Part shown: piece by piece, positions 3,230 through 33,663 of the stretch | Position numbering within the stretch: the stretch's first letter is position 1 | Layout of the letters: the number at the start of each line of letters is the position of its first letter | Source of the DNA: a virus | Length of the DNA stretch: 43,810 nucleotides | Direction: 5' to 3' (one strand) | Virus record (IMG/VR): IMGVR_UViG_3300021404_000022 | Coordinates: 1-43,810 of that record | Notes under the pieces: generated by a model | Told to the model about the DNA's origin: nothing | The model's input: only the letters and a program-made list of their open reading frames with translations | Database searches by the model: none | Made by a program: the position numbers and the translations under genes

Positions 3230-3770
3230 AGCGACTGATAGCACAAAGGCACCGATCTCGGAATCGTTCGACGTTTTGTTCGAGCGCATCGCCGCTCTGG
3301 AGGCTGAGCGGGACGTAGCGCAGAATGATCCAAACCTCAAAGATTGCTCTCCTGCTGTGTTAAAAGCAATCATTGCATTTCACAAGAAGCGGACAGAGTT
3401 GCTACGTGCAGAGAATACTGCGCTGAAGGGAAAGTACGACGAAACCGTAGGCGTAATGAGGGCAGAGGGTAACAGGCTACGACAGGAAATTCTTCGAATT
3501 GAAAATGAACTGCGCAAGTTAGAAGACGCCGAGGAATACGGCAATGAAATGGAAAGACGTTGGGATGCTGCCGAGAAACATCAAGCCGAGCTAGACGTTG
3601 TGATTACTAATATGCTAGCCATGATTGAGCGGCTGAAGGCTCCCGTGAGCGATGCGGAGAAAAAAGCCATCGCATTCAGATTTGGCGGAGGAAGCGTGGC
3701 AAATGAATTTGACCGGATCATCGCCGCCCGTCCCTCCACACCCAAAAGTGCCGCAAAGGAGAATGAGTAA
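3222..3770 (+). CDS. Coiled-coil protein
   Basis: The 182-residue protein is dominated by a long charged helix (about residues 20-140) with heptad-like spacing in ERIAALEAERD, ENTALKGKYDE and IENELRKLEDAEEYGNEMERRWDAAEKHQAELD. It ends in a low-complexity basic/acidic tail (STPKSAAKENE). It overlaps the previous gene by 8 bases and the next by one (TAATG), so it belongs to the same operon. Such proteins in phages may be scaffolding-like or host-binding factors; I cannot assign a role. Confidence 0.6.
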   Translation: MTEATDSTKAPISESFDVLFERIAALEAERDVAQNDPNLKDCSPAVLKAIIAFHKKRTELLRAENTALKGKYDETVGVMRAEGNRLRQEILRIENELRKLEDAEEYGNEMERRWDAAEKHQAELDVVITNMLAMIERLKAPVSDAEKKAIAFRFGGGSVANEFDRIIAARPSTPKSAAKENE

Positions 3771-4207
3771 TGAACAAATTAAAACCTTGTCCTTTTTGCG
3801 GCAGTGAGGCAAGGTGGGCGACAACTCATGCCGAAAGCGATTGGGAAATTCAATGTTCCAATAGCGACTGCCTGTTGCTTGTATACGGTCAAGGTCAAAC
3901 AGGCGAGGAAACTGTGGCGGCATGGAATAAGCGTGTTCCCGATCCTGACGTTCTACAAAAAGTGGCATTTCAGGCCCAACAAATGGCCGAGGAAATGGCG
4001 CGGAAAATTAAGAGGAGTCAGATGAGTGAAATACCAAGCACACGATGCAGACGATGTGGCCATCTATCTGACTGGCATCGTCTCGATGACTCGAAGAATG
4101 AAGGTCCAACTGATCTAAATGCTAAGTTTCGTTGCATTGGCTATGACTGCGAAGCACCTGGTCCGCCAGTTAAGAATGGCTGCGATTGTCCTAATTTCGT
4201 TAAATAA
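3770..4207 (+). CDS. Lar-like restriction-alleviation domain with a second zinc ribbon
   Basis: Residues 1-55 fit the Lar_restr_allev pattern: LKPCPFCGSEA, a central CSNSDC, then ETVAAWNKR. Classical Lar of Rac prophage alleviates type I restriction. Many phages carry this short zinc fold with unproven function. Residues 90-145 add a second four-cysteine module (TRCRRCGHLSDWH, FRCIGYDC and CDCPNF), so this is longer than the usual 60-70-residue family member. It is the last gene of the tightly overlapped operon. Confidence 0.6.
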   Translation: MNKLKPCPFCGSEARWATTHAESDWEIQCSNSDCLLLVYGQGQTGEETVAAWNKRVPDPDVLQKVAFQAQQMAEEMARKIKRSQMSEIPSTRCRRCGHLSDWHRLDDSKNEGPTDLNAKFRCIGYDCEAPGPPVKNGCDCPNFVK

Positions 4208-13450: not shown

Positions 13451-15715
13451 ATGACCAAGCAAAAGACACGCGCACCCAAGACGAAGAAAAGCGCGGTCCC
13501 GGCCGAGCCCACTGCGTTTGAGGAGATCGAGAAGCAGGTTCGTACCCATCCCGAAGACGGGAAGCGTGCGACGGATAACGCGATCAAAGAGCCGGAGAAG
13601 GTCAAAGCATTCGATGCCTTTCAGAACCTTCTAGCCAGGCTTGGCTTTGGCTCGAATAACCTTTTGGAGAGCACTCGCTACCCGCTCACGCGGTTGTCAA
13701 ACAACTACGTGCTCATGCAGAGTTTGTACCGATCCAACTGGATCGCGCAGCGCGTAGCCGATACCTATCCGGAGGAAATGTGCAAGCTGGCGCCCAAACT
13801 CACGTGCCAGGTGCATCCAAAGGAAATCGCCAGTTTCGATCGCGTTGTGGAGAAGTGCGGAGTCTGGCGCAAACTCGAATGGGCGTTGAAGCTGGCCAAT
13901 ATCTTTGGCGGTTCGGGCGCCATAATCATTATCAAGGGCCACGAAAACCACCTCGACCGTCCGCTTGATTTCGAGGAGATCCGGCCGGACTCGTTCCGCG
14001 GCGTCATTCCCTTCGATCGGTGGAGCGGTATCACGCCGAGCGCGAAGGTCTCCACCGATATCGAGAAGCCGCTCGACTATGGGCTGCCTGAGAGCTACCG
14101 TGTCACGAAAGAAAGTGGCGGCGGATTCGATATTCATGCATCACGTGTGCTGAGGTTCACCGGCCGGGATCTGCCGCTCTGGGAACAACAGGCCATGATG
14201 TATTGGGGAGAGAGCCTTTTCGAAGCGGTATATGAAGAATTGGTCAAGCGGGACAATACCAGCTTCAACATCGTTTCTTTGATGTTCCGTGCGCAGATTC
14301 TCGGCCTGAAGATTCCGGAACTGGGAAGCATCCTATCCGGCTTGAATCTCGATACGAATGCGCTCCAACGGTTGACCGCGGTGATCTCGACGCAATCGCA
14401 GTTGATGAGCAACCAAGGACTCGCGGTATTCGGCAAGGATGGCGGCATCGAGCAGCATACGTACAGCTTCGGCGGCCTAGCCGACATGTACCACGAGTTC
14501 ATGAAGGATACAGCGGCGGCCTCTGAGATTCCCTTCGAGATCCTCTTCGGTCGCGATTCGGGCCTGGGTGATTCCGGCGAAGGCTCGCTGCAAATCTACT
14601 ACGATCGCGTTGCGCACAAGCAGACTACAAAGCTGAGTCCAGCGCTTGAGAAGCTGTATCCGTGCGTGGCCATGAGCACGTGGGGGGACATCCCCAAAGA
14701 CTTTGCTTGGTCGTTCCCGATCGCTCGCACGGTGAGCAATAAGGAGAAGGCAGAACTGGCGAAGCAACTGAACACGCCGGTTATCGAAGCCTTCAATGCG
14801 GGATTGATCTCGCAGAAGACTTCGCTCATGGAGTTCCGCCAGAATTCCGACATTACGGGCGTCTTCTCGAACATCACCGATGATGACATCGAGAATGCGG
14901 ATGATCAGGTTCACGGGCCGGGCGAAATGGGCGGCATGGGTGAGATGGGCGGCGAAGGCGCCTTCGGATCTCCCAAGGCAAAGAATCCGAAAGCCAAAGA
15001 GCCGCGTCCATCGAGCACTAGCAGTGAAGCTGAAGACTCGCTCGAGCCGTTGGATTGCGACGGATGCGGCGAACTGATTCGCGGCAACAATTATGAAGAG
15101 CGCAAGGGGAAGTTCCTTTGTCCCAAGTGCATCAAGAAGGCAGGCAAAGACGGAAAACGTAAGGCGGCCGATGCGGTCATGCCTGGCTATGATCCGTATT
15201 CCGCTCCGCTCGGTTCGGTCGAGGGCATGAAGCAGTATCACGGCCTCGATGTTGTTATCGAGACACCGAAAGGCCAGCGCAGAGTAGGACTATGGTGGAG
15301 GCACACGCTGCCTGCCGACTATGGCTATATCGAGTCCACAACCGGCGCCGATGGCGATGAAATGGATTGCTATGTCGGGCCGGATGTTGAAAGTCCACTG
15401 GCGTTCGTAATCGATCAGAACAAACTCGATTCCGATCGCTTCGATGAACACAAGGTGATGCTCGGCTACAACTCGATGGACGAAGCCAAGCAGGCTTTCC
15501 TTCAAGGTCACAACTATGGCAAGCAGATCTTCCGCGGAATTACGCCGATGACAATGATCGACTTCAAGCGCTGGCTCGCCAAGGGCGATCGCAAGAAGCC
15601 TTTGTACACGCCAGACAAATTCAACACGGTTGAATTCCGTGCGCAGCTTCCGGCCTTTGATGCGGAGATCTGCGCGTCATGTGAAGCTGGCGACTGTACC
15701 TTACACGCGGAGTAG
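13451..15715 (+). CDS. Portal protein (DUF1073-type) fused to zinc ribbon and pyrophosphatase-like domain
   Basis: Residues about 55-485 match the DUF1073 anti-portal/portal family of myovirus-like phages: NNYVLMQSLYRSNWIAQRV, then GGSGAIIIIKG, then ASRVLRFTGRDLP, and a C-terminal helix region with MKDTAAASEIPFEILFGR and SGEGSLQIYYDRV. It forms the dodecameric ring through which DNA is packed. Unusually the chain runs on to 754 residues. A low-complexity linker (MGGMGEMGGEG) is followed by a four-Cys ribbon (DCDGCGELI and FLCPKCIKK, about 533-565). At about 590-715 is a domain with LPADYGYIESTTGADGDEMDCYVGP and FDEHKVMLGY, matching the InPase domain of phage polyvalent proteins. The extra part may travel in the virion. 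Confidence 0.88.
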   Translation: MTKQKTRAPKTKKSAVPAEPTAFEEIEKQVRTHPEDGKRATDNAIKEPEKVKAFDAFQNLLARLGFGSNNLLESTRYPLTRLSNNYVLMQSLYRSNWIAQRVADTYPEEMCKLAPKLTCQVHPKEIASFDRVVEKCGVWRKLEWALKLANIFGGSGAIIIIKGHENHLDRPLDFEEIRPDSFRGVIPFDRWSGITPSAKVSTDIEKPLDYGLPESYRVTKESGGGFDIHASRVLRFTGRDLPLWEQQAMMYWGESLFEAVYEELVKRDNTSFNIVSLMFRAQILGLKIPELGSILSGLNLDTNALQRLTAVISTQSQLMSNQGLAVFGKDGGIEQHTYSFGGLADMYHEFMKDTAAASEIPFEILFGRDSGLGDSGEGSLQIYYDRVAHKQTTKLSPALEKLYPCVAMSTWGDIPKDFAWSFPIARTVSNKEKAELAKQLNTPVIEAFNAGLISQKTSLMEFRQNSDITGVFSNITDDDIENADDQVHGPGEMGGMGEMGGEGAFGSPKAKNPKAKEPRPSSTSSEAEDSLEPLDCDGCGELIRGNNYEERKGKFLCPKCIKKAGKDGKRKAADAVMPGYDPYSAPLGSVEGMKQYHGLDVVIETPKGQRRVGLWWRHTLPADYGYIESTTGADGDEMDCYVGPDVESPLAFVIDQNKLDSDRFDEHKVMLGYNSMDEAKQAFLQGHNYGKQIFRGITPMTMIDFKRWLAKGDRKKPLYTPDKFNTVEFRAQLPAFDAEICASCEAGDCTLHAE

Positions 15716-15717
15716 CC

Positions 15718-16593
15718 ATGCCACAGCCTGTCACTATCAATCCGTATGAATCCTGTCGGGGTAAGAGTATTTATGAGGGCCTCAAGGCGTGGGATGCAGA
15801 CTTCAAAGAGAGTGAGCATCCGCGGAGCGAATCTGGAAAGTTCGCGTTGAAAGCTGGCCAGACCACTGAGCAAGCTTTCAGAAACGAAAAAGGCGACTGG
15901 CATCCGGAGCGCCAGGAACTTCACAACAAGGTGATTGCGAAATATCTCGAAGGCAAGAAAAAGAGAGAGAGCGGAAGCCCGGAGGCGTATGTTCTCGGCG
16001 GCGGTTCAGCTTCGGGAAAATCAACCGGATTCAACGCGATGTATGCCAAACAGTTTCGCGATGAAGTTGTCCGCATCGACTCCGATCTCTTGAAGGAAGA
16101 GATTCCAGAGTACGGAGAGTTGAAGAAGCGTGATCCGGAAAACGCTGCGCGTCTCGTGCATGAAGAATCCAGCCACCTGGCCAAACAATTGGCCGCGATC
16201 GCATCCGCCAAGAAGATCGATATGATCTACGACTCGACTGGATCGGGAGGCGGCATTCAAGGTATGGCAAAGACGTTGAGCCATGAAGGCTACAACGTCC
16301 ACGTCGTCTACTTCGACATTCCCATTCCGGAAGCACGTCGAAGGGCTGAGAAGCGAGCGGAGCGCACGGGGCGCCACATTCCCGAAGAGGTGATCCAGAA
16401 CTCGCACAGAGGGAGCGCGAAGAACTTCCTGGCCATGCATCAAGGCAAGTACGTAAAGACGATGAACCTCTACGACAATTCCGAGCGCGTACCAGCTTTG
16501 GTCTATAGCAAGAAGGGTGCCGAGCCGGGTATAGTTGTGGATGGTAAAAAATGGAAAGAGTACCAGAAGAAGGCGGGAGTGGAAGCAGAATGA
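15718..16593 (+). CDS. Zeta-toxin-like P-loop kinase
   Basis: The 291-residue protein has a P-loop GGGSASGKST at about residues 94-103. It continues in the zeta-toxin/UDP-GlcNAc-kinase order: VVRIDSDLLKEEIPEY (substrate-binding Asp), a helical middle with HEESSHLAKQLAA, DMIYDSTGSGG, then VHVVYFDIPIPEARRRAEKR with the conserved Arg residues. Zeta toxins phosphorylate UDP-N-acetylglucosamine and block wall synthesis. Phage homologues near portals are often part of polyvalent injected proteins and no antitoxin is seen here. The N-terminus has a motif, NPYESCRGKSIYEG, shared with the gene at 17399, and a head-protein-like HPRSESGKFA. It follows the portal by 2 bases. Confidence 0.75.
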   Translation: MPQPVTINPYESCRGKSIYEGLKAWDADFKESEHPRSESGKFALKAGQTTEQAFRNEKGDWHPERQELHNKVIAKYLEGKKKRESGSPEAYVLGGGSASGKSTGFNAMYAKQFRDEVVRIDSDLLKEEIPEYGELKKRDPENAARLVHEESSHLAKQLAAIASAKKIDMIYDSTGSGGGIQGMAKTLSHEGYNVHVVYFDIPIPEARRRAEKRAERTGRHIPEEVIQNSHRGSAKNFLAMHQGKYVKTMNLYDNSERVPALVYSKKGAEPGIVVDGKKWKEYQKKAGVEAE

Positions 16594-17402: not shown

Positions 17403-17755
17403 GCAATCCAGTCGTTACGAACCCTTACGAGATCTGCCGCGGCAAGAGTCTCTACGCTGGCATCCGAGCCAAGGCCACTGATTCAGGGCCGGGTCTAGAC
17501 GCCAGAGGCACTGAGGATGAAGTCGCCACACTTATGGAGTATCGTTCCTTCGGTACAGGCAAGCTGAAGGGCTACAACTTCGCAACGTATTACCGTCACG
17601 ATGGCGACATCCAAATCACAGTTCGTTTCAAGGATGGGATCGTAGTTAATTCCACGATCGTATTCGCAGGCAACGACGCGAAAAAGAAAGATCCGGCCGA
17701 GACTCGCGACGGTTTCAAAGGTCTCTTTGAATTTGCGCAGGCGTACGGCGATTGA
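17399..17755 (+). CDS. Hypothetical protein with shared NPYxxCRGKSxYxG N-terminus
   Basis: The first 26 residues (NPYEICRGKSLYAGIRAKA) closely match the N-terminus of the kinase product at 15718 (NPYESCRGKSIYEGLKAWD). The remaining 90 residues are a beta-rich domain (YNFATYYRHDGDIQITVRFKDGIVVNSTIVFAG) unlike the kinase. The shared leader may be a sorting or docking signal, for example for capsid loading. The downstream function is unknown. Confidence 0.55.
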   Translation: MSNPVVTNPYEICRGKSLYAGIRAKATDSGPGLDARGTEDEVATLMEYRSFGTGKLKGYNFATYYRHDGDIQITVRFKDGIVVNSTIVFAGNDAKKKDPAETRDGFKGLFEFAQAYGD

Positions 17756-17771
17756 AAGGTAGCGAGTAAAA

Positions 17772-18050
17772 ATGGCGGAAGTTCCAACGCTCAGTCTGGC
17801 CGTACATATCGTGAATGCTTACGAGTTGAAGCGGGACGGAATCTATCTGCTTCGGATTCCCGGCATCGGCGGTCCAAGTGCGACCAAACTCATGTCGGAA
17901 ATCGGAAAGCAGGTAGCGGCCATCGGCGAGAAAGCCGGATGCACGTTCATTCTCATGGGTGATGACTTCGAGATCGTGAACCCGGAAGTGCTCACCGAGT
18001 CTCCGCAGTTCCGAGCGGCCATGCGGCGAATCTTGAAAGGGCCGTTCTAG
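17772..18050 (+). CDS. Hypothetical protein, 92 residues
   Basis: The compact alpha/beta sequence (YLLRIPGIGGPSATKLMSEIGKQVAAIGEKAGCTFILMG) has a short IPGIGG turn reminiscent of helix-hairpin-helix loops, but the rest does not fit that family. A small phage protein of this kind is common near head genes. No known motif can be named. Confidence 0.5.
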   Translation: MAEVPTLSLAVHIVNAYELKRDGIYLLRIPGIGGPSATKLMSEIGKQVAAIGEKAGCTFILMGDDFEIVNPEVLTESPQFRAAMRRILKGPF

Positions 18051-18080
18051 TAGTACGAAGATTGACACAGGAGGTAAGCC

Positions 18081-18293
18081 ATGAAAGCAAGTCTCAAAGT
18101 CGCTCTGTTGCTCGTCCTGGCTCTGTTCAGTTTTTCGATGCCAACCGCAATGCAGAAGGCAAGCGCTCTTCCAATTCCTTGGTGTACTCCGTGGGGTCCA
18201 TGTACGCCACCGTGCGTTAAGAGTTTTCTTCCCATTCCAACTTGTACGCCTGGCACGCCGTGCGTTCCGTGGCCTGCACCTTGCGCGAAATGA
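18081..18293 (+). CDS. Secreted Cys/Pro-rich peptide with tandem repeat
   Basis: AGGAGG precedes ATG 18081. The N-terminus is a clear Sec signal peptide (MKASLKVALLLVLALFSFSM, cleavage near QKASA). The mature part of about 41 residues contains six cysteines and many prolines. It is built from two similar halves, LPIPWCTPWGPCTPPC and LPIPTCTPGTPCVPWPAPC. It probably folds through three disulfides in the periplasm or outside the cell. I know of no named family. An effector, inhibitor or exclusion role is speculation. Confidence 0.6.
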   Translation: MKASLKVALLLVLALFSFSMPTAMQKASALPIPWCTPWGPCTPPCVKSFLPIPTCTPGTPCVPWPAPCAK

Positions 18294-18577
18294 AAGATCC
18301 TCACGATCTGGACCTGGGTGACGGTCACTGGCTGGACTGGCTTACTTACGAAGGCGAGCGATGCGGAGGAAGCATCACTCACACGACGAGCAAGACTGAA
18401 ACCGGATTCTGCGAAGGCGCTTTCTTTATTGCCGGAGCCAAGGCGCTTGGATCGTTTCCCAATCGGCCGGTATGGACGTTCACCGGATCTTGGGAAACGC
18501 CGACGATGGCGCCGTCGTTCCTGTGTCATTGCGGGGATCACGGCTTTATCAGAAATGGAAAGTGGCAACGAGCATGA
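18290..18577 (+). CDS. DUF6527-like small protein
   Basis: Starting at ATG 18290 (ATGA overlap with the previous stop), the 95-residue protein ends FPNRPVWTFTGSWETPTMAPSFLCHCGDHGFIRNGKW. This is the W-x-PTxxPS-x-CHC-x-H-x-F-x-G pattern of DUF6527 phage proteins. The Cys/His cluster suggests metal binding. A second member lies at 39993-40316. The biochemical role is unknown. Confidence 0.55.
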   Translation: MKDPHDLDLGDGHWLDWLTYEGERCGGSITHTTSKTETGFCEGAFFIAGAKALGSFPNRPVWTFTGSWETPTMAPSFLCHCGDHGFIRNGKWQRA

Positions 18578-18969
18578 AGCCGGTTTATCAAGATCGATTC
18601 GGATCGGACGGGAACTGTCTCGAAGCGTGCATTGCGACGCTCTTGGATCTGCCTCTCGCGGCCGTGCCGAATTTGGGCGGTGATGCGACATACGAAGAGA
18701 ACATGGCAAAGTTTCTCGCGTCGCAAGGCATGATGTACGTCTTGGTCGAAGGGCCAGGAAAGATCGAGAAGGAATTGCTCGCGGAGATGTTCAAGGCCGG
18801 AGACGTTTATCACATCATTGAAGGCATCTGCAACGACGGAGCGCCTCACGCGATCATCGGTTTGAATGGACAACAAGATTTTGATCCACATCCGCCATTC
18901 GTTCAGCATGAAACCGGGCCAGGGCTGAAGCGAGTTGACGGATGGGGATTCATCGTGAAGAGGCTTTAG
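18574..18969 (+). CDS. Papain/C39-like cysteine protease-fold protein
   Basis: The 131-residue product starts MKPVYQDRFGSDGNCLEACIATLLDLPLAAVPNL, a widespread phage motif in which the NCLEACIAxLL Cys is the presumed nucleophile. It ends HAIIGLNGQQDFDPHPPF, supplying the His and Asp of a C39/papain-like triad. It overlaps the previous gene by four bases. Its TAG stop touches the left edge of the alternating repeat array, so the array occupies the whole space between this gene and the leftward tas-like gene. Confidence 0.6.
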   Translation: MKPVYQDRFGSDGNCLEACIATLLDLPLAAVPNLGGDATYEENMAKFLASQGMMYVLVEGPGKIEKELLAEMFKAGDVYHIIEGICNDGAPHAIIGLNGQQDFDPHPPFVQHETGPGLKRVDGWGFIVKRL

Positions 18970-18982
18970 CGCTCTCCAATCC

Positions 18983-19945
18983 TGGCGCTCTCGTTCGAAT
19001 TGGCTCGCTCTACAGTCTTGTTACTGTCCTTGTAGTTGACTCACTCCCTGACAGTGGAACTCTCATGACACGTGATTCGATCTTTTGCTTTGGAACACTC
19101 TGGACATATGACTCGCTCGGCAACACTGATACATTGTCGCTCTTTCTGGCTCGTTCGATGATTCTGATACGTTCTCGAATAGTGACTCGCTCTCCTAACG
19201 TGGAACTCTCATGACTTTGGGGCTCGTTCACAGAACATGGCACGCTCACATTTTTTGACTCGCTCCGTTTTATTGATACTGTCGATTGACCTGGCTCACT
19301 CTCGCTTGATGGCACTCTCCCGATATTTGGTTCGCTCCCGGTAGATGGATCTCTCGAAAGTAATGGCTCACTCTGGCATCATGTTACCGTCGTCAAGTTT
19401 GGTTCGTTCTCTCCGCTTGGTACGCTTGACAGGGATGGCTCGCTCATTCGACATGGAACTCTCTGACTTTTGGGCTCGCTCTCGGTGAATGGTACTGTCA
19501 GACGAAGTGGCTCGCTCGCTATCGCTTGGCACTCTCAGAATTCTTGGCTCGCTCACACGTTATGAAACACTCTATCGTTGATGGCTCGATCATTGGTTCG
19601 GGTACTCTCGTTTGGGATGGCTCGCTCCCAACCTATGAAACTGTCAAGTTGACTGACTCGCTCAACGGGCATGGAACTCTCGCTAGGGATTGACTCATTC
19701 GGATACCCTGATACGATCGTGAGGAATGATTCGCTCCTCCTTGTTTGGCACGCTCTACATTAATGGCTCACTCTTGGTTCTTGGTACATTTCGGACTACT
19801 TGGTTCGTTCCTTTTACTTGGCACTCTCAGCCTTACGTGACTCGATCCTCTAGTTTGATACGGTCATTCTGGATGGCTCGCTCTCTAGGCTTGGTACTCT
19901 CGTGGGGATTGACTCGCTCGTGAAATTTGGTACGCTCGCTCTACA
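18983..19945 (-). repeat. TIGR-like array: 53 alternating 10-bp repeats with 8-9-bp spacers
   Basis: Reading the plus strand, 53 repeats of 10 bases recur every 18 bases (occasionally 19 or 20), each followed by a variable 8- or 9-base spacer. Two types alternate without exception. Type A is near TGGCTCGCTC (for example 19001, 19109, 19436, 19874) and type B near TGGAACTCTC or TGGTACTGTC (19055, 19454, 19490, 19892). They differ most consistently at base 5, T in A and A in B. An A/B pair spans about 36 bp, so there are 26 pairs. No two spacers I compared are identical. This is the architecture reported for TIGR arrays, processed to 36-nt guides with two spacers. A degenerate unit lies at 18965-18982, and a partial one at 19946 overlaps the stop of the tas-like gene. 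Strand is assigned as co-directional with that gene; this is inference. Confidence 0.85.
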
Positions 19946-19948
19946 TGG

Positions 19949-20755
19949 CTAAATCTCGTGAGCATGGCCGAGAATGGCGATCGCAAACGGCTTGGGTGGT
20001 TCTTTACCGAAGTGATTACGAAATGCTTCGGCCTGGTAGTGACTGAGGAAGATCTTCACGGCATAGCGGCGAGCGCGAGCATGGACGTGGGCCGGTGGCA
20101 GTTTGCCGACTGAATATGCTTTGTATGCTTCAGTCGTTTTTCGCAGCTTCTTCGTTTGAAGAATGCGAACGCACTCTTCGGCAAATCCGCCAGCTTCGTT
20201 GATGGCGATGTATTCCAGCTTGCGCTTGGCATAAAGCTTGCCGTAAACATCATCGGCGTGATTCTGAACCTTGACGAATGACTCGCCGAGTTTGAATGCG
20301 CACAGAGTTTTGAGCGCTGCATTGAAAGGACGCTTTTCTCCCTTTTCCCATTTCAACGTGGGATCGAGACCGGCAAAGCGCCAGATATGGCCAGCGGTGG
20401 GCGCCTTCGTAATGTCGATGTGAGCAAGCAAACCGGCTGAGATCACGGGACCGATGCCAACGATTGATTTGGCCCAACGGCCCATGTATTGGCTGTCAGT
20501 CCATTTGTCGAGGGCTCGCTTGATCTGGGATTCAAGAGTTGCATCTTGCGCGGCCAGGTAGCCGATGACGGAATGAGGTTCCTCATTCTCGGCAAGGGTT
20601 CGCAACTGTGCATTGGAACGGATGCGGTTGTCCTGCATGGTGTAGTAGGCGTCCACGAGATACCGGGCCTCAGTGATCGAAAGCAGCGAAGCGCTTTTCG
20701 CTAGGTCCAAGGTCATTCGTTTGACGGGTTCAAAGGCAATAGACAGATCACTCAT
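19949..20755 (-). CDS. Tas-like protein: stand-alone Nop/IS110 C-terminal-like domain
   Basis: The 268-residue protein has an N-terminal helical region (LSIAFEPVKRMTLDLAKSASLL). A segment at about 97-132 typical of the Transposase_20 half of IS110 enzymes follows: SIVGIGPVISAGLLAHIDI, a helix-hairpin-helix, then APTAGHIWRFAGLDP. A basic helical tail (VHARARRYAVKIFLSHYQAEAF) ends the chain. IS110 transposases have an N-terminal DEDD RuvC-like domain before this part. None is present, nor HNH, and no terminal repeats or bridge-RNA flanks are seen. The same fold relation (Nop domain, IS110, box C/D snoRNP) defines Tas proteins, so with the adjoining array I call it a nuclease-less, TasA-like protein that would bind guide RNA and target DNA. 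GGGAGG precedes ATG 20755. Confidence 0.82.
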   Translation of the reverse strand: MSDLSIAFEPVKRMTLDLAKSASLLSITEARYLVDAYYTMQDNRIRSNAQLRTLAENEEPHSVIGYLAAQDATLESQIKRALDKWTDSQYMGRWAKSIVGIGPVISAGLLAHIDITKAPTAGHIWRFAGLDPTLKWEKGEKRPFNAALKTLCAFKLGESFVKVQNHADDVYGKLYAKRKLEYIAINEAGGFAEECVRILQTKKLRKTTEAYKAYSVGKLPPAHVHARARRYAVKIFLSHYQAEAFRNHFGKEPPKPFAIAILGHAHEI

Positions 20756-20778
20756 TGTTGTGTTCCTCCCGCAATGAT

Positions 20779-20813: not shown

Positions 20814-21665
20814 ATGCCTGTCGGTTTTCAGCCTCCAAGCCGGATCGAAATAGAGTACAGGAAAGCGATCCAGCGTGCGATCGTGAGTTCCATCCCGCGG
20901 CCGAGCGCGGATCTCACGGTTGATGAGTGGCTCGAAGAACTTGCAGCGATCAGCCGGAGCCAGGATCTAGCCGAAATGGCCGCGGCGATCGCCGGAAGCA
21001 TGGTGCGATGGGTCAATGTTCACAATGCTCGTACCTGGCGCGAGGCTAGCGCTCGATCGCAGCGCTCACAGATGTTATACCGGCTTTTACAGCAGGAGAT
21101 GCAAGGTCCGGTTGGGAATCGCTTTCGCGAACTGGTCAACGAGAATGCACGGTTGATCTCTTCGATTCCTCAAGAGATAGCCGGGTATCTCAATTTCGAG
21201 ATTGGCCGAGCGCAGCAACAGGGCGCCAGGCCGGAGACGATCGCCAAAATGCTGGCGAACCGTTTCCCAACTTTAACGCAAAGCCGCATCAACCTGCTTG
21301 CACGAACCGAGACGAGCAAAGCATCAACTGCTCTCACGCGAGCGCGTAGCGAAGAGCTTCAATTGCCAGCCTATGAATGGTTGACGGTTGAAGATGCTCG
21401 TGTCCGTCCGAGTCATCGCAACCTAAACGGCGTGATTGTATTTTGGGAAGATCCGCCTTCGCCTGAAGCTTTGATTGGAATTCGTAGCACGCTCGGTCAC
21501 TACAACAGTGGCGATTGCCCAAACTGCCGGTGTACGCAGCGAGTCATTCTTTCTCTCGATGACGTGAACTGGCCGCATCGGGTCTATCGCTATGGAAACA
21601 TCACGCGCATGACACGCGCAAATTTCGCCAGCATGTCTGGCATCGAGTCCCGTGCAGCGGCCTAA
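20814..21665 (+). CDS. Head morphogenesis protein (Mu gpF/SPP1 gp7-like)
   Basis: The 283-residue protein contains the conserved C-terminal Phage_Mu_F segment: ARTETSKASTALTRARSEELQLPAYEWLTVEDARVRPSHRNLNGVIV at about 163-210, then CPNCRCTQRVIL. The Asp-Arg-Val-Arg-x-x-His and Cys-x-x-Cys-Arg-Cys residues mark the family. Such proteins are minor head proteins packed with, or near, the portal and needed for head assembly or DNA ejection. The N-terminal part is helical. The start is ATG 20814 (a TTG sits one codon upstream). It begins the second rightward structural block. Confidence 0.85.
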   Translation: MPVGFQPPSRIEIEYRKAIQRAIVSSIPRPSADLTVDEWLEELAAISRSQDLAEMAAAIAGSMVRWVNVHNARTWREASARSQRSQMLYRLLQQEMQGPVGNRFRELVNENARLISSIPQEIAGYLNFEIGRAQQQGARPETIAKMLANRFPTLTQSRINLLARTETSKASTALTRARSEELQLPAYEWLTVEDARVRPSHRNLNGVIVFWEDPPSPEALIGIRSTLGHYNSGDCPNCRCTQRVILSLDDVNWPHRVYRYGNITRMTRANFASMSGIESRAAA

Positions 21666-21674
21666 AGGAGAACT

Positions 21675-21809
21675 ATGCCTAAAGGCGGACCATTTTGTTT
21701 CACCGTTAAGTTCAAGCAATTCCCATTGCTCGTTGGCGGATGTTTCATGCTGTTCGGCGAGTGGATCATCAAGAAGTTTGCGATACGTATCGTTGAAGTG
21801 TCGCAATAA
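21675..21809 (+). CDS. Small hydrophobic protein, 44 residues
   Basis: AAAGGAG precedes ATG 21675. The peptide is MPKGGPFCFTVKFKQFPLLVGG followed by CFMLFGEWIIKKFAIRIVEVSQ, with one hydrophobic stretch and a basic amphipathic end. It may be membrane-associated. It lies between a head protein and a secreted protein. Confidence 0.45.
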   Translation: MPKGGPFCFTVKFKQFPLLVGGCFMLFGEWIIKKFAIRIVEVSQ

Positions 21810-21837
21810 AAGCCGCAAGGCAAAAGGAGAAACGCAA

Positions 21838-22296
21838 ATGAGATTCGTCAAACTCGCAGTCCTGTTCGTCCTGGCGGCAATTCTGCCGATGGCAGTTGCA
21901 CAGGGACCAAACCTCACCGTCATCCAGTACAACTCGAACATCAACCCTTGCCAGTCTACGAGCATCGTGAAATCGAGTGTCGTTGTTGCGCAGAGCACAG
22001 CCACTACGACTGCTCTTGTTGCGGCCGTTGCTGGAAAAACCACGTACGTTTGTGGATTCTATGCGACGTTCAGCGGAACGACTCCGGCGCTCACCTTCAA
22101 AACTGGTACGCAGACAACGACTGCTTGTGACACTGCTACCGCATCACTGACAGGAACGTTCCTGCCAACCTCGGGAAGCTACATTGGAATGGGCGGACCG
22201 GGGACACTGTTTCAGTCGATCGCAAGTGGGCAGTTATGCGTCACGTCAGTTGCGAGCGCGGCCGTATCCGGTGTGTTGGTCTACGTTCAGATGTAA
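21838..22296 (+). CDS. Secreted Thr/Ala-rich protein with signal peptide
   Basis: AAAGGAG precedes ATG 21838. MRFVKLAVLFVLAAILPMAVA is a canonical Sec signal peptide cleaved near AVA-QG. The mature part of 130 residues is Thr/Ser/Ala-rich beta sequence (ATTTALVAAVAGKTTYVCGFYATFSG and TFKTGTQTTTACDTATASL) with four or more cysteines. Disulfides are likely outside the cytoplasm. Its place among head genes makes a capsid role tempting, but a signal peptide argues for export to the periplasm or surface. Confidence 0.6.
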   Translation: MRFVKLAVLFVLAAILPMAVAQGPNLTVIQYNSNINPCQSTSIVKSSVVVAQSTATTTALVAAVAGKTTYVCGFYATFSGTTPALTFKTGTQTTTACDTATASLTGTFLPTSGSYIGMGGPGTLFQSIASGQLCVTSVASAAVSGVLVYVQM

Positions 22297-22306
22297 GGAG
22301 TGATCC

Positions 22307-22612
22307 ATGGCGACTATAGCTGAATCAGCATTCACGCCAACGGCCCGTGCGCAAATGGCAGCGGAGCCCACGTCGAGCAATGTTGCATTGCCTACGACGG
22401 GGACTCCGACGCTCCTTCGCGTGACAAATCTCGGTCCCTTCGATGCATTCGTTTTGTTGGGGTCCAGCAGCGCCGTAGCGGCTGCAGTCGCCACGGGTCT
22501 AACCGTTCTTGCGCGAACCTCCTCGCCTTTTCTTGTCATCGGAAGCAATACCTATCTCGCTGCGATCACGCAGAGCGGCGGGGCAGCGCTCAACTTGGAT
22601 CTAGGCAACTAG
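22307..22612 (+). CDS. Probable minor structural protein, 101 residues
   Basis: The small Ala/Thr-rich beta protein (TPTLLRVTNLGPFDAFVLLGSSSAVAAAVATGLTVLARTSSPFLVIGSNTYLAAITQSGGAALNLDLG) has the look of short phage head-decoration or fibre-tip domains of the 'LRVTNxGxxxAFVxxG' kind. It sits between a secreted protein and a fibre-like protein. The assignment is from composition and context. Confidence 0.45.
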   Translation: MATIAESAFTPTARAQMAAEPTSSNVALPTTGTPTLLRVTNLGPFDAFVLLGSSSAVAAAVATGLTVLARTSSPFLVIGSNTYLAAITQSGGAALNLDLGN

Positions 22613-33299: not shown

Positions 33300-33368
33300 C
33301 AAGTTAAGCATGTCAACGCTGCAGAAAGATGATTTCGGACACGGGTTCGACTCCCGTCATCTCCACCA
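33300..33368 (+). ncRNA. ssrA: tmRNA acceptor piece (recognisable core)
   Basis: The core holds the 3' strand of P2, the AUUUCGGAC-like stretch typical of tmRNAs, a T arm with ACGGG (33341-33345) / loop TTCGACT / CCCGT (33353-33357), then the acceptor strand and ACCA, with CCA encoded. The true 5' end of the mature piece lies upstream and cannot be fixed. A GGCGGC/GCCGCC hairpin at 33272-33290 probably belongs to it. Confidence 0.85.
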
Positions 33369-33446
33369 ATAAAATACGAGCCAAAGTCGTGAGACAGCAA
33401 CAGGCAGGCAAAGGGTGGAACTCCCGCACGATGAGTAGCTCTCCAT

Positions 33447-33663
33447 GGGGATGTCACGGTTTCGACGGGATCAGCAGACTGTAGTTTCATGCCGGGATTG
33501 ATGCTCACCGTAACGAGAATCAAACAGAAAACTGCCACCAATCGTGACAGTGCGAAGAGTGCTAAGGTTCTGGCCTTCCCGGCCATGCCGGAAGCTCTTC
33601 CAATGGCTGCTTAATAAACAGCCGGAGCCTCTCGGTGCTTGGCAACAGAAACCGAAAGAGGGA
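33447..33663 (+). ncRNA. ssrA: tmRNA coding piece with tag reading frame
   Basis: It begins GGGGATGTCACGG and has the D-loop signature GGTTTCGACGGG. The tag frame probably resumes at GCC 33534 and runs 26 codons to tandem stops TAA TAA (33612-33617). The encoded tag starts ATNRDS and ends EALPMAA, a hydrophobic end as in ClpXP degradation tags. It is longer than many bacterial tags. A pseudoknot or hairpin (CCTCTCGGT and ACCGAAAGAGG) follows the stops. Confidence 0.8.

What the first reader, a model, noticed from the sequence alone, without database searches (positions are those of the whole stretch)
18983..20755. Phage-borne TIGR-Tas-like RNA-guided system: alternating 36-bp dual-spacer array next to a nuclease-less Tas-like gene
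Seen: 53 repeats of 10 bp with 8-9-bp variable spacers. Two repeat types alternate strictly, giving 26 A/B pairs of about 36 bp, beside one gene whose product has the IS110 C-terminal (Transposase_20/Nop-like) helix-hairpin-helix but no RuvC or HNH. Known: TIGR-Tas systems, described in 2025 in phages and parasitic bacteria, pair such arrays with Nop-domain Tas proteins and yield 36-nt guide RNAs with two spacers. Inference: this is a TasA-like, cleavage-free, RNA-guided DNA-binding system used by a phage, perhaps to silence host or rival genes or control its own. An automatic pipeline would probably call it an IS110 transposase plus low-complexity DNA.
Basis: partly seen in the sequence, partly recalled or inferred. 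Interest (0 to 1): 0.97.

Follow-up and report, generated by a model that had tools for sequence, protein, structure and literature searches.

The report
Phage TIGR-TasA RNA-guided system, 27 guides
A phage genome carries a recently described kind of RNA-guided DNA-binding system (TIGR-Tas, nuclease-less TasA type) with an unusually long array of 27 dual-spacer guides; it is a genuine new member of a known kind, and what its guides bind is still unknown.

Summary
At 18965-19955 there are 55 alternating 10-nt repeats (53 full, plus a truncated edge repeat at each end) with 8-9-nt spacers, giving 27 units of about 36 nt. Next to them lies a 268-aa Nop-domain gene (19949-20755, minus strand). NCBIfam's TIGR-Tas model matches at E=1.5e-56, above its cut-off. 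The AlphaFold2 model (pLDDT 90) is closest to TasH and TasR complexes, with IS110 recombinases behind. It is all-helical, without RuvC or HNH: a TasA. Of 93 related loci, 90 have such arrays, almost always on the tas strand, so the guide strand here is MINUS.

Two results add to the published picture. Between related phages, arrays turn over in whole edge-A-loop-B units (neighbours across a loop kept 113/149 times, across an edge 63/164). The tas-array block is cargo: tas-less relatives run from portal to MuF gene directly.

No target was found for this array. One lead: a guide in the Acidobacteriaceae KBS 96 tas prophage exactly matches an early gene of a second prophage in that chromosome, but the lysogen test overall was not significant (2/10 cognate versus 1/20 non-cognate). 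Verdict: new member of a known kind.

The parts
19949..20755 (-). tasA gene: 268-aa solo Nop-domain TIGR-associated protein without RuvC or HNH
   Evidence: NCBIfam NF052498 E 1.5e-56; profile against PDB: TasR 2.1e-26, TasH 2.5e-18; AlphaFold2 pLDDT 90.2, all helical; Foldseek best matches TasH and TasR
20765..20769 (-). GGAGG ribosome-binding-site-like motif, 9 nt before the tasA ATG
   Evidence: read from the sequence
18965..19955 (-). TIGR array: 28 edge and 27 loop repeats of 10 nt (first and last edge truncated), 27 units of spacer A and spacer B, mostly 8 nt each; guide strand minus
   Evidence: strand assigned from relatives
19946..19955 (-). first edge repeat, 5'-truncated (GATTT|AGCCA); contains the tasA stop codon at 19949-19951
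19915..19950 (-). predicted first 36-nt tigRNA: half edge AGCCA, spacer A TGTAGAGC, loop GAGCGTACCA, spacer B AATTTCAC, half edge GAGCG
   Evidence: unit boundaries; mid-edge processing assumed from PMC12045711, not tested here
18965..18974 (-). last edge repeat, 3'-truncated (GAGCGC|TAAA); abuts and overlaps the end of the plus-strand gene 18472-18969
   Evidence: read by eye; no terminator-like site found on the minus strand behind it

Best explanation
This is a dual-repeat TIGR-TasA system carried as cargo by a contractile-tailed phage. The tasA gene and the array directly behind it are probably transcribed together on the minus strand. The transcript is expected to be cut, with the help of TasA, into 27 different 36-nt tigRNAs (half edge, spacer A of 8 nt, loop, spacer B of 8 nt, half edge). 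A TasA dimer holding one tigRNA would bind a DNA site of the form A-(0-2 nt)-rc(B), spacer A pairing with one strand and spacer B with the other. Having no nuclease, it would act by opening, bending and occupying the site, blocking transcription or replication there. Most likely it is aimed at other mobile elements in the same host, such as rival phages. Shown here: gene identity and predicted fold, absence of a nuclease domain, array anatomy, guide strand, edge-A-loop-B as the inherited unit, cargo status. Inferred from characterised relatives: processing, dimerisation, dual-strand DNA pairing. Inferred more weakly: competition between mobile elements as the use. The confidence given is for a TIGR-TasA system working as an RNA-guided DNA binder; for the competition role alone I would say about 0.5.
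For: NCBIfam TIGR-Tas 191.7 bits against a cut-off of 100. Profile matches TasR 2.1e-26 and TasH 2.5e-18 against IS621 3.2e-5. Foldseek: eleven best PDB matches all TasH or TasR, 6e-8 to 2e-4. All-helical model, no nuclease fold. Strict dual-repeat array with 36-nt period. Arrays in 90 of 93 relatives, on the tas strand. Spacer pairs across the loop are inherited together: 113/149 against 63/164 across the edge, same direction in 7 of 7 groups. Tas-less relatives lack the block between portal and MuF. No exact self-target, as expected of a system aimed elsewhere. Mechanism from PMC12045711.
Against: No RNA evidence of any kind. No target found for any of the 27 guides, and no excess of targets for about 1,500 guides of relatives in tas-phage DNA or near integrases of tas-bearing genomes. 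No clear promoter or terminator was found on the minus strand around the locus. A TasA could have another use, such as helping integration, or could bind RNA.
Confidence: 0.82

Rival explanations
1. Same RNA-guided TasA, but aimed at the host chromosome, to regulate host genes during infection or lysogeny rather than to fight rivals.
For: One of three tested guides of the Halomonas NO4 tas prophage matches its own host exactly, inside an MFS transporter gene.
Against: Cognate hits were 2 of 10 against 1 of 20 non-cognate, not significant; that site is GC-rich coding DNA in a GC-rich genome. Arrays change quickly between related phages, which fits moving targets better than fixed host genes.
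Confidence: 0.15
2. The TasA-tigRNA complex guides or bends DNA for phage integration, packaging or segregation instead of silencing.
For: Strong DNA bending by TasR, and the authors' suggestion of integrase aid and ParB-like partners (PMC12045711).
Against: 27 different guides with no self-target are hard to explain by one att or pac site; no Pfam or PHROG match to an integrase or ParB among the window ORFs that were scanned (not every ORF was scanned).
Confidence: 0.05
3. snoRNP-like RNA targeting: TasA with its guides binds host or phage RNA.
For: Nop domain and box C/D-like guide layout (PMC12045711).
Against: TasR had no activity on RNA substrates (PMC12045711); RNA targets were not searched for here.
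Confidence: 0.04
4. A decayed IS110 transposase next to low-complexity DNA.
For: Pfam Transposase_20 7.7e-5; PHROGs label 'transposase'; NCBIfam IS110 at 28.6 bits, far below its cut-off of 140.
Against: Intact gene, conserved over its whole length at a similar size in most relatives; the array recurs in nearly all of them; TIGR-Tas matches far exceed IS110 ones.
Confidence: 0.01

Closest known systems
TIGR-TasA, dual-repeat type (Faure et al. 2025, PMC12045711; e.g. Flavonifractor plautii FpTIGR)
   Same: Solo Nop-domain protein, downstream array of alternating edge and loop repeats of 8-12 nt, dual spacers, 36-nt unit, truncated edge repeats at both ends, found in phages.
   Different: 27 units, against most often 5-15; spacers of 8 nt, not 9; box D-like start GA instead of UG; no terminator seen behind the array. 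I could not compare sequences with FpTasA directly.
TIGR-TasH (Salicola phage CGphi29; PDB 9w04, 21kl, 9vzx)
   Same: Closest solved structure by fold; 16 nt of spacer per guide (PMC12045711).
   Different: TasH has an N-terminal HNH nuclease; here there is none.
TIGR-TasR (PDB 9mty)
   Same: Nop domain, best sequence-profile match in the PDB; both repeats end in CCA.
   Different: TasR has a RuvC nuclease, 9-nt spacers and UG box D.
IS110 bridge-RNA recombinases (IS621, ISCro4)
   Same: Related RNA-binding domain.
   Different: No DEDD domain here, no bridge-RNA layout, and far weaker matches.
Type IV and V-M CRISPR systems (cited in PMC12045711)
   Same: Presumed working principle: RNA-guided binding without cutting, used between mobile elements.
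   Different: Unrelated proteins, repeats and guides; no membership claimed.

Membership tests
TIGR-Tas, dual-repeat | Nop-domain Tas protein | tested here: met
   NCBIfam NF052498 above cut-off; TasR and TasH by profile and by fold
TIGR-Tas, dual-repeat | Adjacent array of two alternating 8-12-nt repeats with about 9-nt spacers and a 36-nt unit | tested here: met
   10-nt repeats, mostly 8-nt spacers
[quoted passage not shown]
   GATTT|AGCCA at 19946-19955 and GAGCGC|TAAA at 18965-18974 on the minus strand
TIGR-Tas, dual-repeat | Rho-independent terminator after the array | tested here: inconclusive
   None found on the minus strand behind the array by a simple scan; described as typical, not required; present by eye in Mvi-JY20 and L004
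TIGR-Tas, dual-repeat | Array processed into 36-nt tigRNAs bound by Tas | not testable with these tools
   needs RNA sequencing
TIGR-Tas, dual-repeat | Tandem-spacer binding of both DNA strands | not testable with these tools
   needs binding assays; indirect support from co-inheritance of A and B across the loop
TasA subtype | No RuvC or HNH nuclease domain | tested here: met
   no Pfam nuclease hit; twelve helices and no strands in a pLDDT 90 model
IS110 recombinase | N-terminal DEDD/RuvC-like catalytic domain | tested here: not met
   absent; NCBIfam IS110 28.6 bits against a cut-off of 140
CRISPR array | Single repeat of about 25-36 nt with similar-sized spacers | tested here: not met
   10-nt repeats of two alternating types, 8-9-nt spacers

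The most novel reading that the evidence does not exclude
Phage-borne TIGR-TasA arrays are a nuclease-free, CRISPRi-like weapon between temperate phages: guides bind early genes of co-resident prophages. The candidate case is Acidobacteriaceae KBS 96: guide TAAAAGCA/TTCGATTC of the tas prophage matches exactly, with no gap, an early stretch of a small excisionase-like gene of a second prophage, next to its repressor and integrase. Arrays would evolve by exchange of whole edge-A-loop-B units inside the array, unlike the leader-end growth of CRISPR.
Probability: 0.25. Interest if true: 0.8.

Novelty: new member of a known kind. Interest (0 to 1): 0.5.

Why it matters
TIGR-Tas was described in 2025 with no known natural targets, no known way of array growth and no clear role for the nuclease-less TasA. 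This locus and its relatives form a coherent set of dual-repeat TasA systems (172 IMG/VR contigs and 13 GTDB genomes). They let the unit of inheritance be read directly from comparisons, and they offer testable candidates: a concrete possible target in a sequenced isolate (KBS 96) and a complete TasA locus in an isolated cyanophage (Mvi-JY20).

Tried and rejected
Self-targets in the window and in three relatives under the A-rc(B) rule, gaps 0-2: no excess over permuted pairs.

Targets of about 1,500 distinct guides in tas-phage and related DNA: exact matches at gaps 0-2 in four orientations no more than with permuted pairs; for the 1,115 guides with two 8-nt spacers, about 1.48 Mb, gaps -3 to 12, no gap or orientation stands out.

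IMG/VR scans for four guides. One gave 27 homologous contigs at the start of a conserved gene (probably a major capsid gene, my reading of the translation). It looked striking, but a scan with another guide gave a homologous cluster of about ten unrelated contigs in the same way, and only one other guide matched the 27 contigs at gaps 0-2. I take it as chance plus homology.

Integrase neighbourhoods of nine tas-bearing genomes: one exact hit only, in KBS 96, already known from the whole-genome search; 1- and 2-mismatch counts did not exceed the control orientations.

Codon-phase tracking of targets by spacer substitutions: too few informative pairs to test.

Fetching relatives of the KBS 96 second prophage: none found. 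Last guide of the window as a tRNA T-arm guide: 4 of 19 IMG/VR hits lie in tRNA genes, not convincing.

Plasmid records: no TasA relative. PADLOC: no match. Rfam: no match over the array. One phage search with an arbitrary peptide was uninformative.

Full report
OBSERVATION. A two-state parse finds 55 alternating repeats of 10 nt from 18965 to 19955: 28 edge-type and 27 loop-type, counting one truncated edge repeat at each end. Spacing is 18 nt in 45 cases, 19 nt in 7 and 20 nt in 1. Clustering the repeats without using their order gives 49 type changes in 53 steps; 20,000 shuffles never exceeded 40. Tandem Repeats Finder does not report the array, which is why it is easily missed.

THE PROTEIN. 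The ORF at 19949-20755 (minus) encodes 268 residues. NCBIfam NF052498, the TIGR-Tas model, matches with 191.7 bits against a cut-off of 100. PHROGs places it full-length in phrog_4285, labelled 'transposase', and Pfam gives only an IS110 C-terminal hit over part of the protein. A profile of 63 relatives finds TasR at 2.1e-26 and TasH at 2.5e-18, but IS621 only at 3.2e-5. The AlphaFold2 model has mean pLDDT 90.2, twelve helices and no strands. Its eleven best PDB matches are all TasH or TasR; IS110 recombinases follow at 2e-3 to 6e-2. No RuvC or HNH fold is present, so this is a TasA.

RELATIVES AND GUIDE STRAND. Searches found 172 related contigs in IMG/VR (80 fetched) and 13 GTDB genomes. The nearest is an Acidobacteria MAG contig (L086, 75% identity). 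A chain search found alternating arrays in 89 of 93 relatives; a further one, Microcystis phage Mvi-JY20, has an array with different repeats, read by eye. The arrays lie on the strand of the tas gene; the same search on the opposite strand found an array in one locus only (L083). The window's guide strand is therefore minus, with box-like ends GA...CCA on both repeats. The tasA stop codon lies inside the first, truncated edge repeat, and the same arrangement is seen in L087.

UNIT OF INHERITANCE. Related phages share parts of their arrays. If a spacer is shared, its neighbour across the loop repeat is also kept in 113 of 149 cases, but its neighbour across the edge repeat in only 63 of 164. 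The direction is the same in all seven groups (Fisher p=2e-11, though cases are not independent, all-pairs count). Differences lie mostly inside arrays, while the first or last units are often the shared ones. This supports edge-A-loop-B as the functional unit from sequence alone, and suggests internal whole-unit turnover rather than growth from one end. I know of no such published comparison, but my literature access was limited to open papers.

CARGO. In L086 the tas gene sits, on the opposite strand, between homologues of the same head genes as in the window. In tas-less relatives with about 72% identical terminase (L100, L101) the portal is followed within about 200 bp by the MuF gene. The tas-array block, with its neighbours between portal and MuF, is therefore an optional insertion in the head-gene region.

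TARGETS. Published rules (PMC12045711) imply a target A-(0-2 nt)-rc(B); I derived the orientation from the reported 3' overhangs. The window's 27 guides have no exact match in the window itself or in about 4.8 Mb of fetched DNA. Across about 1,500 guides there is no excess in tas-phage and related DNA. For lysogens, ten guides were tested against three whole genomes: exact matches were 2 of 10 cognate and 1 of 20 non-cognate, which is not significant. The KBS 96 match (expected about 0.06 for six guides in 6.7 Mb, uniform-base estimate) lies in a second prophage. Its surroundings are an integrase, an HTH repressor and Terminase_4, and the site falls early in a small excisionase-like ORF, L192:7743-8003 (the excisionase label is my reading of the sequence). 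A second guide of that array matches the same prophage with two mismatches at the outer end of spacer A. The Halomonas match lies in an ordinary transporter gene. Sampling integrase neighbourhoods in nine tas-bearing genomes gave no further exact hits. I treat this as a lead, not a result.

MECHANISM. Processing, dimer formation, dual-strand pairing and strong DNA bending are taken from the work on TasR, TasH and TasA (PMC12045711). For a nuclease-less Tas they imply occupancy of the site rather than cutting. Competition with other mobile elements is the most economical use for a phage-borne, fast-changing array, but it is not shown.

VERDICT. A real, well-formed TIGR-TasA system: a new member of a known kind, with a longer array than most.

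Noticed in passing
window 33308-33614 (+): A permuted tmRNA gene sits in an intergenic gap among the tail genes (Rfam tmRNA_permuted 4.5e-18; alpha_tmRNA also above its gathering score; ARAGORN gives tag ATNRDSAKSAKVLAFPAMPEALPMAA). A phage-borne permuted tmRNA may also hint at the host.
   Followed up: partly
window 13451-15715 (+): The portal protein carries a C-terminal inorganic-pyrophosphatase-like domain (InPase, 1.9e-34).
   Followed up: no
window 15718-16593 (+): Zeta-toxin-like kinase directly behind the portal, in the same region as the tas cargo (PF06414 8.4e-31).
   Followed up: no
window 3770-4207 (+): Lar-like restriction-alleviation protein match (phrog_599, 1.5e-11).
   Followed up: no
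L005 (PP438412.1, about 21367-22430): The isolated Microcystis phage Mvi-JY20 carries a solo Nop-domain gene annotated 'hypothetical' and, directly behind it, a dual-repeat array of about 8 units ending in a terminator-like hairpin. A phage isolate in which TasA could be tested.
   Followed up: partly
L192:7053-7068 and L192:7963-7978 (KBS 96, about 6.33 Mb): Two guides of the KBS 96 tas prophage match the early region of one second prophage, one exactly and one with two end mismatches.
   Followed up: partly
L083: Several arrays on the tas strand plus one of 64 repeats on the opposite strand at 17524-18685, the only opposite-strand array found among 94 loci.
   Followed up: no
L004:9006-9570: The same or nearly the same spacer B (TTAAAGCA, TTAAAACA, TTAGAGCA) recurs with different spacers A, suggesting half-unit duplication or shared half-sites.
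   Followed up: no
NCBIfam NF052498: The model is named 'RNA-guided endonuclease' but also scores this nuclease-less TasA above its cut-off, so annotations may overstate activity.
   Followed up: no
window 18975-19017 (last unit, -): Spacer A of the last unit (ATTCGAAC) is the reverse complement of the common tRNA T-loop sequence GTTCGAAT; 4 of 19 IMG/VR matches to the whole target lie in tRNA genes. Weak.
   Followed up: partly
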